Source: Eunapius fragilis (taxonomy: Eukaryota; Porifera; Demospongiae; Spongillida; Spongillidae). Taken from it: a stretch of 64,000 nucleotides of DNA. Shown here piece by piece: positions 15,828 to 53,202 of the stretch. The position numbers and the translations under genes are program-made. The notes under the pieces are model-generated. The model saw only the letters and a program-made list of their open reading frames with translations. It did not search any database and was not told where the DNA came from. Numbering within the stretch: the first letter of the stretch is position 1; every line of letters begins with the position of its first letter. The stretch is taken from assembly GCA_963681505.1 (NCBI GenBank), contig OY811971.1:23653036-23717035 (forward strand), read 5' to 3'.

Positions 15828-16120
15828 TAAGTAAATAAAAACATTCTCTACGAGAAAGTTGGTGGGATATAGGATTTGCTGGCAATTGGTAGTGTAAAAA
15901 GCAAGGAAACAAGGTCTTATCAGAAGGGAAAATGTAATAGTCCTATATTTATAGCACATTTGTAGGCATATATTGTTCTGCATGTGCTAAATATAGGACT
16001 ATTACATTTTTCCTTCTGATATAAGACCTTGTTTCCTTGCTTTTTACACCACCAATTGCCTGCAAATCCTATATCCCACCAACTTTCTCGTAGATAATGT
16101 TTTATTTACTTGTTTCATTG
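15828..16120 (+). mobile_element. Hairpin-family copy A: long terminal hairpin
   Basis: Two arms of about 135 bases pair almost perfectly around a loop near 15960-15985. The outer end is AAGTAAATAAAAACATTCTC and the arms carry GTTGGTGGGATATAGGATTTG. Both arms share a copy-specific shortening (TCTACGAG rather than TCTAACGAG), as if they had been copied from each other. It is the first part of an element extending to about 16745. Confidence 0.8.
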
Positions 16121-23175: not shown

Positions 23176-23631
23176 TTAAGCGAGCAGGACATCGCAATTG
23201 GAAGTGAATTCCTCCTCTTTCCCTCCGAACGGAATATAGACCACCTTGTATTTGTAGCAGGCCTTCCCCGACACGAGCATCCCGTCCGCACGGCGAGCCC
23301 TCGCCACGTATAGGTCTCCGGTTCCCGTGTCGTTCCCTCCCATGACAGCACCATGAGGGGGGGCGGTGGCCTTGGCATCAAAGGGTACCCACTTGAGCTC
23401 CACTTGCTTGGGGTTAGTGAGGACTTCGTAATCCGGTAGGTAGATTTCTTTACCGCCGTGGCTGGCGTGAGCAATTTTATATGATGTAGCCAGTTTCCCC
23501 GGGGTTAGACCCGACGGAAGTTTTATTCTCGCTACATAAAGAGGTTCTCCGTCAGTGTTGCTCCCCCCACTCACCGCATGAGCCGGGAGGGAACCCTTGC
23601 AGCCTGCTTCCCAGACTAAGCTTTGAGCCAT
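23176..23631 (-). CDS. DM9-domain protein (two DM9 repeats)
   Basis: A single-exon gene of 151 residues starts MAQSLVWEAGCKGSLPAHAV. Two tandem DM9 repeats are visible. The first is about residues 6-76, with GGSNTDGEPLYVAR and GLTPGKLATSYKIAHASHGG. The second is about 78-150, with WVPFDAKATAPPHGAV, GGNDTGTGDLYVARAR and MLVSGKACYKYKVVYIPFGG. This W-x-G-x-P-x-x-A-V-x-G-G / LYVAR / PGK pattern is the DM9 signature. In oysters, two-repeat DM9 proteins are mannose-binding lectins with roles in recognition; that role is family knowledge, not shown here. There is no signal peptide, so it is probably cytosolic. A conserved TATA-like element lies about 65-75 bases upstream. A broken second copy lies inverted at 25563-25920. 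Confidence 0.88.
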   Translation of the reverse strand: MAQSLVWEAGCKGSLPAHAVSGGSNTDGEPLYVARIKLPSGLTPGKLATSYKIAHASHGGKEIYLPDYEVLTNPKQVELKWVPFDAKATAPPHGAVMGGNDTGTGDLYVARARRADGMLVSGKACYKYKVVYIPFGGKEEEFTSNCDVLLA

Positions 23632-28740: not shown

Positions 28741-29392
28741 AGGAACTACGATAGTTCCTATATAGGAATTGACCCGGGTCGTGAATATCATTTTATAAAA
28801 CGCGACCCGCGTATAACTCGCGTACCGAGAAACGGATAGTGTAGCTCTTTGTTGCTATCGAACCAGAAGGCAAAGACGGTCATTCTAATGTTTTATTCCA
28901 GTCTTCGAACTGTTTGCTTTAAGAGAAGAAAAAGTTCGTGTTTTACATCGTCCCCAGGCCAAATCTTCTCCGTCGTCAACGTCGTCGTCTTCTTCTCGGG
29001 TGAGTATGACTCCGGATAGGAATGGTTTTAAAGAGCGCCAATTATACCAATCGCTTTAGAATATCTTGGAAGGACATCTTCAAGTATCAGATGTATGAAT
29101 AAAGCATAAAACTGACATACGTAATCATTACGTAATGCGTAATGTAAAATAGAAGCGTTCCCATGGCGACATCTACGTATATTTAGAATTGTGCAAACAA
29201 AAGAGGAGAGCTAAGCAACGAAACGACGAGTTAGAATTCTCCCGCGTTCCTTACAGTTATCCCAAACAAAAGCGGGCGTCTGCTCGTGACGGTAATTGAA
29301 GTGGGGGTGGGGGTGGGGGGGGGGGGTGGGGGGTGGGCACTTGCCGTAATAATAATCGATAAAAAATGATAATAAAAAAAATAGAGGAAACA
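28741..29392 (-). mobile_element. Hairpin-family copy B: body and 3' end
   Basis: On the minus strand this matches the bodies of copies A and C: a GAAGAAGACGACGACG-rich tract, GGTTCGATAGCAACA, ATCCGTTTCTCGG, then TCAATTCCTATAT. A perfect 7-bp stem hairpin (GGAACTA CGA TAGTTCC) follows, and then CTGA followed by T. ATATAGGAATTG is the inverted copy of the 12-base motif in its own long hairpin. A G-rich tract lies at about 29303-29335. Confidence 0.65.
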
Positions 29393-29697
29393 AGTAATGA
29401 AAAACATTCTCTAACGAGAAAGTTGGTGGGATATAGGAATTGGGGGCAATGGTGGTGTAAAAAGGAAGGGAACAAGGTTTTGAGAAAAGGGTAATGAGAC
29501 AAAAATCCTACATTTAGCACGTGTAAATGTAACAGAACCAAGAGAAGTGCTAAATATAGGATTTTTGTCTCACTACCCTTTTCTCAAAACCTTGTTCCTT
29601 TCCTTTTTACACCACCATTGCCTCCAATTCCTATATCCCACCAACTTTCTCGTTAGAGAATGTTTTTCTCGTTAGAGAATGTTTTTCATTACTTGTA
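29393..29697 (-). mobile_element. Hairpin-family copy B: long terminal hairpin
   Basis: Arms of about 140 bases share ACAAGTAATGAAAAACATTC at their outer ends (where copies A and C have TAAATAAAAAC) and GGGATATAGGAATTG inside. One arm carries an extra tandem CTCGTTAGAGAATGTTTTT unit. The internal parts of the arms differ strongly from copies A and C but match each other. Confidence 0.8.
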
Positions 29698-30031: not shown

Positions 30032-30745
30032 TTGATCAGCAAGTTACCTGACACACCAATCGAACTGTGTAATACTCAGTTTACTAATCGCCAATCATAT
30101 GAAGAAATGGCACAACAAGTGTTTTGTAGCACAAAGGTATCCAAAGAAGGTGCTGAGATGATTGAAAAGCATACAAGGCTACAGAGAGAATGCATGGAAT
30201 GGCACAACCAACGAAGAGGGCGCTTGACGGCATCAGTTTTTCATGATGTCTTTAGGCATAAACAAGGGAATACTGTTTTGTTGGTTTCAAGGCTTTTGAA
30301 ACCAAATGATCTAACTACACTACCTGGGGTATTGCTAATGAAAGCAAGGCAAGAGACATTTATTTATACACAAAAGATGGCTTCTACTCATACGAATTTT
30401 GAATGTCACACTTCTGGACTAGTAGTGAATCCTTCATATTCATTTCTTGGTGCCAGTCCAGATGGTGTTATGCTTTGTGGTTGTTGTGGTGAAGGAATAG
30501 TTGAAATTAAATGTCCATGCTCGATCAAAGACCATGACCCAAACACTTGTAGAGGGAAACCAAAGTTCTTTCTAATGCAACGTGGACTATGCACCACACA
30601 CACAAATATTATACACATGCAGGTTCAAGGTCAGCTAACCATATGTGATAAACAATTCTGTGATTTTATTGTGTGGACAACAAATGGATTGTTTATTCAA
30701 CGTATATGTAGAGACAGACGTTTTTGGTTAAAGCTTTCCCCATAG
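30032..30745 (+). CDS. YqaJ-like exonuclease of ISL2EU-type transposon
   Basis: The 237-residue ORF has the YqaJ/lambda-exonuclease-like PD-(D/E)XK core: RRGRLTASVF (about residues 61-70), LGASPDGVM with Asp144, and GIVEIKCP with Glu158 and Lys160. The later GQLTICDKQFCDFIVWT segment is the usual helix and strand after the active site. Such nucleases are thought to assist transposition in ISL2EU elements, perhaps by processing DNA ends; the exact role is not established. The stop at 30743-30745 is an in-frame nonsense codon, because the same frame continues into a PHD finger. The start at 30032 is the first Met in the open frame; upstream exons are possible. Confidence 0.82.
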   Translation: MISKLPDTPIELCNTQFTNRQSYEEMAQQVFCSTKVSKEGAEMIEKHTRLQRECMEWHNQRRGRLTASVFHDVFRHKQGNTVLLVSRLLKPNDLTTLPGVLLMKARQETFIYTQKMASTHTNFECHTSGLVVNPSYSFLGASPDGVMLCGCCGEGIVEIKCPCSIKDHDPNTCRGKPKFFLMQRGLCTTHTNIIHMQVQGQLTICDKQFCDFIVWTTNGLFIQRICRDRRFWLKLSP

Positions 30746-47118: not shown

Positions 47119-47245
47119 TCACACAGTAGTTCTCTCGGTTTTGCTTAGTAGCCTGCTTCCGTAGGCTATAATGTGTTCAGTTCCATCACTTGTGGCCTGA
47201 GAGAGCACTGCTTCAATTCCAATATCACTGGCATCTGTATCTAGA
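47119..47245 (-). pseudogene. Gypsy RNase H segment
   Basis: VLDTDASDIGIEAVLSQATS and HIIAYGSRLLSKTE are the first-Asp strand and the following strand of an RNase H domain. The segment just before it (CQEAFGDLLNRFVCAP and PRDYILPF) lies at 48020-48128, separated by the inserted hairpin-family copy C. Confidence 0.8.
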
Positions 47246-47545
47246 ACAAGTAAATAAAAACATTCTCTAACGAGAAAGTTGGTGGGCATATAGGATTGAC
47301 AATGTTGGTGTAAAAAGCACGGAAACAAGTGTGACAGAAATGTTACTGGAAAATTGAAATAGGCCTATATTTAGCCCGTTTTCTCAGGCGTGCGCTGCCT
47401 AAATGTGACTGGGCTAAATATAGGCCTATTTCAATTTTCCAGTAACATTTCTGTCACACTTGTTTCCGTGCTTTTTACACCAACATTGTCAATCCTATAT
47501 GCCCACCAACTTTCTCGTTAGAGAATGTTTTTATTTACTTGTTTC
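47246..47545 (+). mobile_element. Hairpin-family copy C: long terminal hairpin
   Basis: About 118 internal arm bases, AACATTCTCTAACGAGAAAG through GGCCTATATTTAGCCC-type sequence, are identical as reverse complements, around a roughly 35-base loop near 47380-47410. A copy-specific variant, GGGCATATAGG rather than GGGATATAGG, is present in both arms. Confidence 0.88.
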
Positions 47546-48017
47546 ATAAGTTTTTTTTTTTTTTTTTAATTAAGAACTTGCTAGAACTTGCTAGATGGCC
47601 ATAGAACTTGCAACAAAATAGGGTATTTCTCGCTGTAGTTTCTTTCTAGATGTGATATGTGTCCAAATGACATGCTAGGATAACGTGCCGGTAAATTCTG
47701 AAGAGATTGGTACTATTGTCGTTCTTTAAAACCGTTCGTAGCTCGAGTTATACCTTCCTAAGGAAGACGACGACGACGACGACGACGAACAATTTTTTTG
47801 GGAATGGGCACGAGAAGCAGGTTCTTTGTTTGTCTGGAAGCGCATAGTTTAATGACATGAAACTAGCATGAAAACGTAGATCTAGGTGTTGTCGTTCGAT
47901 TGCTGCAGCGAGATAAGTGATCCGTTTCTCCGTTGTCCCTCCCGACGCGATTTAAAAATTTTAATGACATTCATCATTCCTCAATCAATCCTATATTGAA
48001 CCTGCTGACGCAGGTTC
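47546..48017 (+). mobile_element. Hairpin-family copy C: body and 3' end
   Basis: After ACTTGTTTC the body has GTTCTTTAAAACCGTTC with CGAGTTAT, a (GAC)7-like tract near 47768-47788, CGTTCGATTGC and GATCCGTTTCTCCG. It then has TCAATCCTATAT and a perfect 8-bp stem hairpin (GAACCTGC TGAC GCAGGTTC), ending CAGA before T. The boundaries are fixed by the interrupted RNase H coding sequence. Confidence 0.75.
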
Positions 48018-48128
48018 AGATAAATGGCAGTATATAATCCCTAGGAAAGCCAAAACCGGTGCACAAACAAAGCGGTTGAGTAGATCTCCAAATGCTTCCT
48101 GGCAAGCAGCTGTTCAATTGCAACTCAG

Positions 48129-51801: not shown

Positions 51802-53202
51802 ATGCTGCGTGAGCTACCGCAACTCATCCCCGCTGTCAGTCTCTCTCTCTCAAAGGCATCCGTTCATAAAGTTGTATCAATTTTGACGAAGCCGCTGGGG
51901 ATGCTCAAAGATAACACTTTTATTAACAATGTATGCCATTTTCCTCGCCCTAACATTTGGGAAGATCTAATAATGTGTCGTTCTGAAGGAGATGCCCAAT
52001 TACATGTTTGGCTATTGATGGGAACTGTTGTGACGGCCTTAAAACTGGACATACATATCACCAATGAAATATCTGTATTCCAGCCATATACCGATTTGTG
52101 GATTCTACTAAAAAAGTCTTTTGAGGGACATTCAATCCCTATTGGTGTTGTAGAAGTGAGGAAGCCTAACTCCAATCTCCACAATGGATGCACACATGGT
52201 CAACTCTATGACTATTTGAAGTTGTTGAAATTAAATTTGAACTTAAACTTTGCAATAGGTATATTGACTAATTTTAATGATTGGCAGGTTCTATGGCTGC
52301 ATGACAATGACGGTGATGCCATAGCTGCTGGAGATATAGACATGCAACAACAATCCAATCATCCAACTTTTACTGCATCTACCAGTGATAATAGTATTCC
52401 TACGTTGAACTTAGATGAATTGAATAATGATAATGAGTCAGACGTGGAATTTACTAGAGATAACGACCCAAGAATTTGTAGTGGAACAACTGTTGTCAGT
52501 AACAAGGATTCTCCTGAAAAGGTTCTATCCTTGCTTGCAACTACCATATGTAAAATGTATACTGTAGTACAGCCTTTATATACTGCACTCATTTCAAAGA
52601 ATCGAGAATTATTTCTCCATACTCCTGAAACTTATTTCTGGGTGCACAGTCCATGGAAGGACTCTGATCACCTTATTTATGACAAGATGCCTCACAGGAA
52701 TTCTAAGCATTTTTACTTTTTGAAAGAAATAGGACAGGGAAGGCATGGCAGGGTGTGGCTGGCATGTTCTTCATCACGAAATGTGTGTGCTATAAAATTT
52801 TATCATACACAAAAAATTACAACACCCGTTGATGCGGAACGTGAGGTAAATGTATGGAAGAGATTGGGATTTAATGGATCACGTGTTGTCACATTGGCAT
52901 CTAGGTGTGCTGTTGTCATGCCATATATGCTGCCCTGCGAGTCTATGATTGTTGAGGGCTTTGAAGAAATGGCCAAAGCTGCAATTGAGAGATTGTCAAG
53001 CTTAGGTTTATGTCACAATAGCATAAGAATTGCCAACATGGGCTACTACAAAACACCTAACAGTAAAGACATATATATATCATTTTTAGATTTGGGATCT
53101 GTTGTCGATTGTGACCAAACTGAAGCATCTGTTCAAATGAATTCTGACCTTAAGAAAGTGTTGGAAAAACTACCTGCTGTTAGTGGCATACCAACAAGAT
53201 AA
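51802..53202 (+). CDS. Restriction-endonuclease-like plus protein-kinase-like protein (Crinkler-type architecture)
   Basis: The 466-residue uninterrupted ORF follows a splice acceptor at 51790. Residues 55-170 look like a PD-(D/E)XK-type fold: PYTDLW, then IPIGVVEVRKP (Glu118, Lys121), GQLYDYLK and FAIGILTNFNDWQVLWL. An acidic linker (about 175-235) leads to a kinase-like domain: EIGQGRHGRVWLA (Gly loop, 309-321), CAIKF (Lys332), VVMPYM hinge, LCHNSIRIANMGY where HRD is replaced by H-N-S but Asn412 is kept, and FLDLGS (D430-L-G). Lack of the catalytic HRD Asp suggests a pseudokinase. Nuclease-kinase fusions are known from the Crinkler/CR family and are abundant in some invertebrates. It appears intact, so it may be a live host or selfish gene. 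The fold assignment of the N-terminal half is inference. Confidence 0.72.
   Translation: MLRELPQLIPAVSLSLSKASVHKVVSILTKPLGMLKDNTFINNVCHFPRPNIWEDLIMCRSEGDAQLHVWLLMGTVVTALKLDIHITNEISVFQPYTDLWILLKKSFEGHSIPIGVVEVRKPNSNLHNGCTHGQLYDYLKLLKLNLNLNFAIGILTNFNDWQVLWLHDNDGDAIAAGDIDMQQQSNHPTFTASTSDNSIPTLNLDELNNDNESDVEFTRDNDPRICSGTTVVSNKDSPEKVLSLLATTICKMYTVVQPLYTALISKNRELFLHTPETYFWVHSPWKDSDHLIYDKMPHRNSKHFYFLKEIGQGRHGRVWLACSSSRNVCAIKFYHTQKITTPVDAEREVNVWKRLGFNGSRVVTLASRCAVVMPYMLPCESMIVEGFEEMAKAAIERLSSLGLCHNSIRIANMGYYKTPNSKDIYISFLDLGSVVDCDQTEASVQMNSDLKKVLEKLPAVSGIPTR

What the first reader, a model, noticed from the sequence alone, without database searches (positions are those of the whole stretch)
47246..48017. 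Hairpin-headed mobile element with no TIR and no clear target duplication, caught inside a gypsy RNase H
Copy C interrupts gypsy RNase H coding sequence between ILPF and LDTDAS. Dropping 47247-48020 or the equivalent 772-774 bases brings CTAGAA next to TAAATGG, which on the minus strand keeps P-F-I-L-D in frame. The site therefore shows a clean insertion with at most one ambiguous A repeated. The unit is a giant hairpin (arms about 118 identical bases or more), a body with a GAC repeat, and a short perfect hairpin followed by CAGA before a T. Ends that are not inverted repeats, lack of target duplication, a 3' hairpin with CTRR-like end and an A/T target resemble Helitron-type insertion. A huge 5' hairpin is not typical.
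Basis: partly seen in the sequence, partly recalled or inferred. Interest (0 to 1): 0.9.

Follow-up and report, generated by a model that had tools for sequence, protein, structure and literature searches.

The report
Helitron with giant flipping 3' hairpin
This is a short, recently active rolling-circle jumping gene, probably from a freshwater sponge, whose tail end folds into an unusually long DNA hairpin whose loop is found in both orientations among otherwise near-identical copies, which suggests DNA copying through the hairpin.

Summary
Window 47247-48020 is a 774-bp mobile element inserted between A and T, with no target duplication, inside a degenerate retroelement RNase H. In the 30 best-matching genome copies the left base is A in 30 and the right base T in 29. 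A mobile partner was found: a 10-kb element coding a 1995-aa RepHel (HUH nuclease, PIF1 helicase) that shares both ends. It is a RepHel (Helitron-superfamily) element, but not a canonical Helitron: no CTRR end, a 131-bp stem flush with the 3' end instead of a short palindrome about 11 nt inside, and a 5' hairpin as well. Unexpectedly, the loop occurs in both orientations (130 and 70 exact genome hits), also between copies with identical bodies, and some changes occur in both arms at once. Orientation is inherited in clonal groups, so it is not randomised each round. Best reading: DNA synthesis templated by the hairpin, through ordinary template switching or, more boldly, parvovirus-like self-priming. 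No such Helitron turned up in the papers searched.

The parts
47247..48020 (-). Whole non-autonomous element, 774 bp, 5'-TCTGAACC...TTTACTTG-3' on the minus strand
   Evidence: Same ends in the 30 best-matching copies, L020's TC end changed; empty-site paralogues
47246..47246 (.). Target base A on the + strand (T after the element's 3' end on the minus strand)
   Evidence: A in 30 of 30 copies; needed for a gap-free empty-site alignment
48021..48021 (.). Target base T on the + strand (A before the element's 5' TC on the minus strand)
   Evidence: T in 29 of 30 copies
47997..48020 (-). 5' end: TC followed by a 9-bp stem / 4-nt loop hairpin (TGAACCTGC GTCA GCAGGTTCA)
   Evidence: Fold; 750 exact genome hits of GAACCTGCNNNNGCAGGTTCAGA, reversed control 0
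47985..47996 (-). 12-nt motif ATATAGGATTGA next to the 5' hairpin; also at 47489-47500 (direct) and 47288-47299 (inverted), one in each arm of the giant hairpin
   Evidence: 1 of 1000 shuffles (first-order Markov) gives a shared word this long
47766..47786 (+). (GAC)7 microsatellite in the body, variable in length between copies
47411..47541 (-). Inner arm of the giant 3' hairpin (131 nt)
47378..47410 (-). Loop (33 nt), found in both orientations across the family
47247..47377 (-). Outer arm of the giant 3' hairpin (131 nt), flush with the 3' end CTTG
29391..29695 (+). Hairpin of an older relative, 'copy B' (arms 96% alike, about 79% to copy C, ungapped columns); its body lies to the left (match at 28971-29062)
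15829..16112 (-). Hairpin of another relative, 'copy A' (arms 97% alike, about 90% to copy C, ungapped columns); its body seems to run to the right (by eye)

Best explanation
Window 47247-48020 is a non-autonomous rolling-circle (RepHel / Helitron-superfamily) transposon, to be read on the minus strand: A[TC + 9-bp 5' hairpin ... body ... giant 3' hairpin ending CTTG]T. Shown: the ends, the A^T target without duplication, a RepHel partner with the same ends, the 131-bp stem flush with the 3' end, the two loop orientations, and paired changes in the arms. Inferred: the RepHel nicks at A^TC, displaces one strand, and the giant hairpin in that strand marks the 3' end for the second cleavage (the role shown for the short hairpin of Helraiser). 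When the hairpin is single-stranded or being copied, polymerase uses one arm as template for the other. This keeps the arms matched and now and then inverts the loop; the new orientation is then inherited by daughter copies.
For: Ends and target. Autonomous partner G000:C1:17969400-17979760: its 5' 337 nt are 85% and its hairpin (inverted) 99% identical to copy C; the 1995-aa ORF lies between them and reads 5'->3' towards the hairpin. It matches Helitron_like_N and PIF1, has an HYH motif, Y2 motif YVTGYVTK and Walker A, and matches Helraiser 7lcc (over the helicase part). Loop orientation: flip 130 hits, flop 70 hits, controls 0; same-body class 67 flip and 7 flop of 74, some of them segmental duplicates; autonomous-type junction class 52 flip and 48 flop of the 100 listed of 108. 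L111 (flip) against L112 and L082 (flop): 340 of 340 body bases identical. Flops L065 and L113 match flip L001 over 185 body bases. Arms: in 30 copies 3 double changes, all 3 complementary, against 17 single-arm cells (L019 and L027, a duplicate pair, counted twice); arms are 96-100% alike within copies A, B, C and 78-91% between them. Template switching is known to homogenise arms and invert spacers (PMC8604942, passages).
Against: The 3' end is CTTG, not CTRR, and the hairpin is neither short nor subterminal. Of 78 Rep places compared (of 91 matches), only 2 have an exact-loop hairpin about 5.5 kb downstream in the expected sense; a third lies 11.9 kb downstream in that sense, one lies 9.9 kb downstream in the opposite sense, and one upstream. 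So the assignment of helper rests on few autonomous copies, of which I read one in full. Some single-arm mismatches are shared by independent insertions (L015, L020, L026), so arms are not corrected in every round. No expression, excision or circle data exist.
Confidence: 0.78

Rival explanations
1. Loop inversion and arm matching have nothing to do with transposition: they arise in situ, by ordinary template switching at the long inverted repeat during chromosome replication, in a Helitron whose hairpin merely grew by chance.
For: This process is described for inverted repeats in yeast, with reversible spacer inversion (PMC8604942, passages). In the same-body class the flops are few (7 of 74).
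Against: Whole subgroups share one orientation (for example 28 flips with the GTGAGT loop and 1 flop with it), so orientation passes through transposition. Two segmental-duplicate pairs kept the same orientation, but they are 99.9% identical and too young to weigh. The spacer inversions reported in that paper change 2-5 bp; here the loop is 33 nt.
Confidence: 0.4
2. Parvovirus-like rolling-hairpin step: the displaced strand ends with a 3'-OH exactly paired inside the hairpin, primes its own second strand, and terminal resolution by the HUH nuclease inverts the hairpin (flip/flop).
For: The stem is flush with the 3' end, as self-priming requires; both orientations exist among copies with identical bodies; none of the 100 5' hairpins listed (of 750) shows a flipped loop.
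Against: Orientation is clonal (67:7, 28:1), whereas an obligatory step should randomise it in each round; shared single-arm mismatches persist; the 5' stem is only 9 bp, so its lack of flips is a weak control.
Confidence: 0.2
3. One reading: the giant hairpin is a 5' head, and the RepHel gene is simply reversed, as in a few Helitron2 elements.
For: Reversed RepHel genes are on record for some Helitron2 elements (PMC3627910, passages).
Against: The 5' TC preceded by A fits only the minus-strand polarity; in the other sense the ends would be CA...GA. The one complete autonomous copy read has the expected sense.
Confidence: 0.05
4. Foldback or MITE-like cut-and-paste element.
For: Long inverted arms are present.
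Against: The arms are both at one end, the two ends do not match, there is no target duplication, and the partner codes RepHel.
Confidence: 0.02

Closest known systems
Canonical Helitron (Helitron1), for example Helraiser / Helibat
   Same: 5' TC, insertion between A and T, no duplication, RepHel partner, a hairpin at the 3' side
   Different: 3' CTTG instead of CTAG/CTRR; 131-bp stem flush with the end instead of a 19-bp palindrome 11 nt inside (PMC4778049, passages); an additional 5' hairpin; loop in two orientations
Helitron2 / Helentron / HINE
   Same: Hairpins at both ends; a 12-nt motif near the 5' end recurs inverted near the 3' end, like an ATIR
   Different: A^T target, not TT or TTTT; no endonuclease domain found in the RepHel frame; the motif does not form the 5' hairpin; hairpin size (PMC3627910, PMC4067079, PMC5148889, passages)
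Parvovirus termini (rolling-hairpin replication)
   Same: HUH nuclease, 3'-terminal flush hairpin, flip/flop-like inversion
   Different: Only one end has it, orientation is inherited rather than randomised, and it is an integrated transposon (AAV model seen only as a figure legend in PMC5714925; the rest recalled)
Template-switch spacer inversion at short inverted repeats
   Same: Arm matching and reversible spacer inversion
   Different: In the yeast study arms of 7-16 bp and inversions of 2-5 bp (PMC8604942, passages); here 131 bp and 33 nt, at a transposon end

Membership tests
Helitron superfamily (RepHel elements) | Autonomous partner coding HUH-Y2 Rep plus PIF1-type helicase, sharing both ends | tested here: met
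   (one partner read in full)
Helitron superfamily (RepHel elements) | No terminal inverted repeats, no target duplication | tested here: met
Helitron1 (canonical) | 5' TC and insertion between A and T | tested here: met
   (29 of 30 at the TC side)
Helitron1 (canonical) | 3' CTRR | tested here: not met
   CTTG in 30 of 30 copies
Helitron1 (canonical) | 16-20 nt palindrome 10-12 nt before the 3' end | tested here: not met
   131-bp stem flush with the end
Helitron1 (canonical) | No 5' hairpin | tested here: not met
   9-bp 5' stem
Helitron2 / Helentron | Hairpins at both ends | tested here: met
[quoted passage not shown]
   12-nt motif at positions 25 and 722 (inverted) and 521 (direct), outside the 5' hairpin
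Helitron2 / Helentron | T-rich (TT/TTTT) target | tested here: not met
   A^T
Helentron | Endonuclease domain behind RepHel | tested here: not met
   Pfam scan of the RepHel frame shows Rep, PIF1 and other helicase models, DUF6570 and an OTU match below its cut-off; the element's other ORFs were not scanned
Foldback / MITE | Matching inverted ends and target duplication | tested here: not met
Rolling-hairpin replicon | 3'-terminal hairpin flush with the end, loop in two orientations | tested here: met
Rolling-hairpin replicon | Orientation randomised at each round | tested here: not met
   67:7 and 28:1 within subgroups
Rolling-hairpin replicon | Self-primed intermediate with a covalently closed end | not testable with these tools
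   Needs DNA intermediates

The most novel reading that the evidence does not exclude
A eukaryotic rolling-circle transposon lineage that has evolved a parvovirus-like 3' terminus: its displaced strand ends in a flush, self-priming 131-bp hairpin, is sometimes made double-stranded by rolling-hairpin synthesis, and carries the record of this as inverted loops and simultaneous changes in both arms.
Probability: 0.2. Interest if true: 0.88.

Novelty: new variant of a known kind. Interest (0 to 1): 0.63.

Why it matters
How Helitrons make their second strand and define their 3' end is, to my knowledge, not settled. A family with about 200 exactly scorable young copies, a 3' hairpin flush with the end and a loop whose orientation can be read gives a natural record of what happens to that end: each loop inversion or paired change marks an event of hairpin-templated synthesis. 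If new insertions flip and resident copies do not, the step belongs to transposition, and Helitrons would share a replication trick with parvoviruses, whose Rep is also an HUH nuclease. It also suggests that search programs relying on CTRR plus a short hairpin would miss such families.

Tried and rejected
Foldback/MITE: rejected. Strict rolling-hairpin replication at each round: rejected, because orientation is clonal. Looking for the giant hairpin within about 1.2 kb of the TGCC-loop type of 5' end (5 places): not found; those elements may be longer. Linking every Rep gene to a hairpin: two clear exact-loop cases, one at 11.9 kb, two that do not fit, plus one conserved-base hairpin near a Rep gene of another group; I did not recover the 3' ends of the other Rep groups. 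Segmental duplicates as a clock for in-situ flipping: too young. Dating and a tree of the class-A bodies: not attempted beyond pairwise differences, since the 185-nt pieces of the five flops differ from the nearest flip by only 0-3 bases, which cannot tell one switch from several. Structure prediction: not run.

Dropped, selected or flawed rows: the 30 copies L001-L030 are best matches to a flip query, so they are all flip by selection; loci L063-L092 were taken from the flop list, so flop-only classes among them say nothing on proportions; only the counts bear on proportions. In one search, 61 hairpin records include L084, whose outer arm is not a real match, and L092 twice; both were set aside when reading the paired changes, and L072 was skipped by the script. 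One of the five paired changes in that call (L082, column 110) is also seen, in the arm visible, in the GTGAGT group. In one search, L015, L028, L073 and L082 were left undecided by the first script: L073 and L082 are flop; L015 and L028 are flip by the sequences printed. In one search end effects of the alignment exaggerate differences for L114-L118; one search repeats it with trimmed pieces. Flip/flop counts for and the facing pairs were read by eye from the listings; the first two were counted twice. One search used 78 of the 91 Rep places and only the first 100 of the 130 flips, so it can miss pairs. L105 is a flip whose body matches nothing well.

Full report
What was checked. The window's 'copy C' has arms at 47245-47377 and 47411-47543, 133 nt and 100% complementary; 131 of these pairs are inside the element and the rest is flank that happens to match. 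As single-stranded DNA the 295-nt hairpin has -162.8 kcal/mol against a mean of -27 for 200 shuffles. A genome search scored 40 of 2410 first-look candidates and listed 86 matches; I took the 30 loci given. In these 30 the element runs from the base after A to CAGA, with A before it in 30 of 30 and T after it in 29 of 30; L020 has a changed end there. So the element is window 47247-48020, 774 bp, in an A^T site.

Empty sites. The interrupted frame is a retroelement RNase H (RT_RNaseH, E 3e-10, 41 aa), already broken by stops. Joined flanks find 25 matches in the genome, two of them the site itself. Of five paralogues fetched, L099 and L102 align without a gap over 70 nt across the join, L098 and L101 reach 4 nt past it, and L100 stops before it. 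A second insertion, L021, lies in another repeat. Its paralogue in L011 reads straight through the join with no base gained or lost (88% over 186 columns, gaps elsewhere), and one in L038 does so at 80%. Neither site shows a target duplication.

The partner and the polarity. Helitron_like_N gives 91 matches in this genome. One of them, C1:17975346, lies in an element whose 5' end is 85% identical to copy C over 337 nt and whose hairpin is 99% identical in inverted orientation. Between them is a 1995-aa open frame with Helitron_like_N, PIF1, and an OTU match below Pfam's cut-off, an HYH motif, YVTGYVTK and a Walker A motif, and a match of its helicase part to Helraiser in the PDB. The gene starts at the small-hairpin end. 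The element is therefore to be read on the minus strand, A[TCTGAACC...TTTACTTG]T, and the giant hairpin is the 3' end. Among 254 protein relatives the two best (99% identity over the region searched) bear 'Em' gene names that I take for Ephydatia muelleri, and the third (95%) is named as that species. The host is thus probably a freshwater sponge of that kind; the genome itself is unnamed.

How it differs from known Helitrons. Helraiser has a 19-bp palindrome 11 nt before CTAG, and that hairpin works as a terminator (PMC4778049, passages). Helitron2 elements have hairpins at both ends and short asymmetric inverted repeats (PMC3627910, passages), Helentrons insert at TT (PMC4067079, passages), and the Fusarium elements are of the Helitron2 kind (PMC5148889, passages). 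Copy C has the TC start and the A^T target of Helitron1, a 5' hairpin as in Helitron2, a 12-nt motif repeated near the 5' end and in both arms (1 of 1000 shuffles), a CTTG end, and a stem of 131 bp flush with the 3' terminus.

The loop is found in both orientations. The autonomous copy's loop is inverted relative to copy C. Genome-wide, exact patterns give 130 copies in the orientation of copy C ('flip') and 70 in the other ('flop'), with no hits for the reversed control patterns. Classed by the body next to the hairpin: copies with copy C's body are 67 flip and 7 flop, all 74 listed, with some segmental duplicates among them; copies with the autonomous-type junction are 52 flip and 48 flop among 100 listed of 108. 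Copies with identical bodies differ: L111 is flip, L112 and L082 are flop, 340 of 340 bases the same; L065 and L113 are flop and equal the flip L001 over 185 bases. But orientation is not random within groups: of the copies with the GTGAGT loop listed, 28 are flip and 1 is flop. It is inherited, with occasional switches.

The arms change together. In 30 flip copies there are 17 cells changed in one arm only (a duplicate pair counted twice) and 3 changed in both arms, all 3 complementary. In the larger set, five paired changes in single copies (one of them also seen in a subgroup) and one shared by the autonomous and a related class are seen. Against constant correction: L015, L020 and L026 share a one-arm mismatch. 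Over longer times the arms of copies A, B and C are 96-100% alike within a copy and 78-91% between copies, ungapped columns.

A wider group. The conserved base of the hairpin has 754 and 783 exact hits on the two strands; in the first 100 listed I count 29 facing pairs 177-241 bp apart, in several spacing classes. One pair lies about 3 kb downstream of a Rep gene of another group (L033). So giant hairpins are probably a feature of several Helitron families in this genome; the ends of those families were not read.

Mechanism. Shown: ends, target, partner, polarity, the two loop states, paired changes. Inferred: that the hairpin marks the 3' end for cleavage, and that DNA synthesis templated by one arm keeps the arms matched and inverts the loop. 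Template switching at inverted repeats is known to do both (PMC8604942, passages), so inversion alone does not prove a transposition step. The flush 3' end would also allow self-priming as in parvoviruses; a review sets the AAV model beside the Helitron model in one figure (legend and passages, PMC5714925). The clonal inheritance speaks against an obligatory rolling-hairpin step; an occasional one is open.

Novelty. Searches of the paper library for Helitron with rolling hairpin or flip, terminal hairpin/palindrome, foldback/long palindrome/sponge, freshwater sponge, terminal sequences/HELIANO/Helitron2, self-priming/cruciform/long hairpin, Ephydatia and Demospongiae listed no paper whose title or opening abstract describes a Helitron with such an end; only open-licence papers are held, most hits were seen as listings only, and passages of seven papers were read (the seventh, PMC13286980, reports an active wheat Helitron with a 17-nt hairpin 11 nt from its end). 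I rate it a new variant of a known kind.

Noticed in passing
window 29391-29695: In the older relative 'copy B' a 19-base stretch near the outer end is repeated in tandem on one arm only, which may be a slip during hairpin copying.
   Followed up: partly
window 30032-30742 (+): ORF of 237 aa with YqaJ / viral alkaline exonuclease similarity, about 340 bases beyond the 3' hairpin of copy B.
   Followed up: no
window 23176-23628 (-): ORF with DM9 repeats, E 2e-33.
   Followed up: no
window 51802-53199 (+): ORF of 466 aa with DUF5898.
   Followed up: no
L061 (G000:C1:17969800-17979760): The autonomous element also carries a first ORF with many repeats of a 42-base (14-residue) unit and a proline-rich 202-aa ORF near its 3' end.
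   Followed up: no
G000 genome, one search list: A second type of 5' end (loop TGCC instead of TGAC), the commoner one among the 100 places listed of 750, belongs to elements whose 3' ends were not reached.
   Followed up: partly
G000:C4:3060518, C5:398474, C5:527362, C8:8933692, C10:5627031, C21:1283167: Six class-A copies share a shortened loop (inner stem lost), which may mark a clonal subgroup.
   Followed up: no
L003/L004 (C17:593386, 580175), L019/L027 (C2:12335098, 12317020): Pairs of copies that are young segmental duplications, 99.9% identical over 3.8 kb; they must not be counted as independent insertions.
   Followed up: yes
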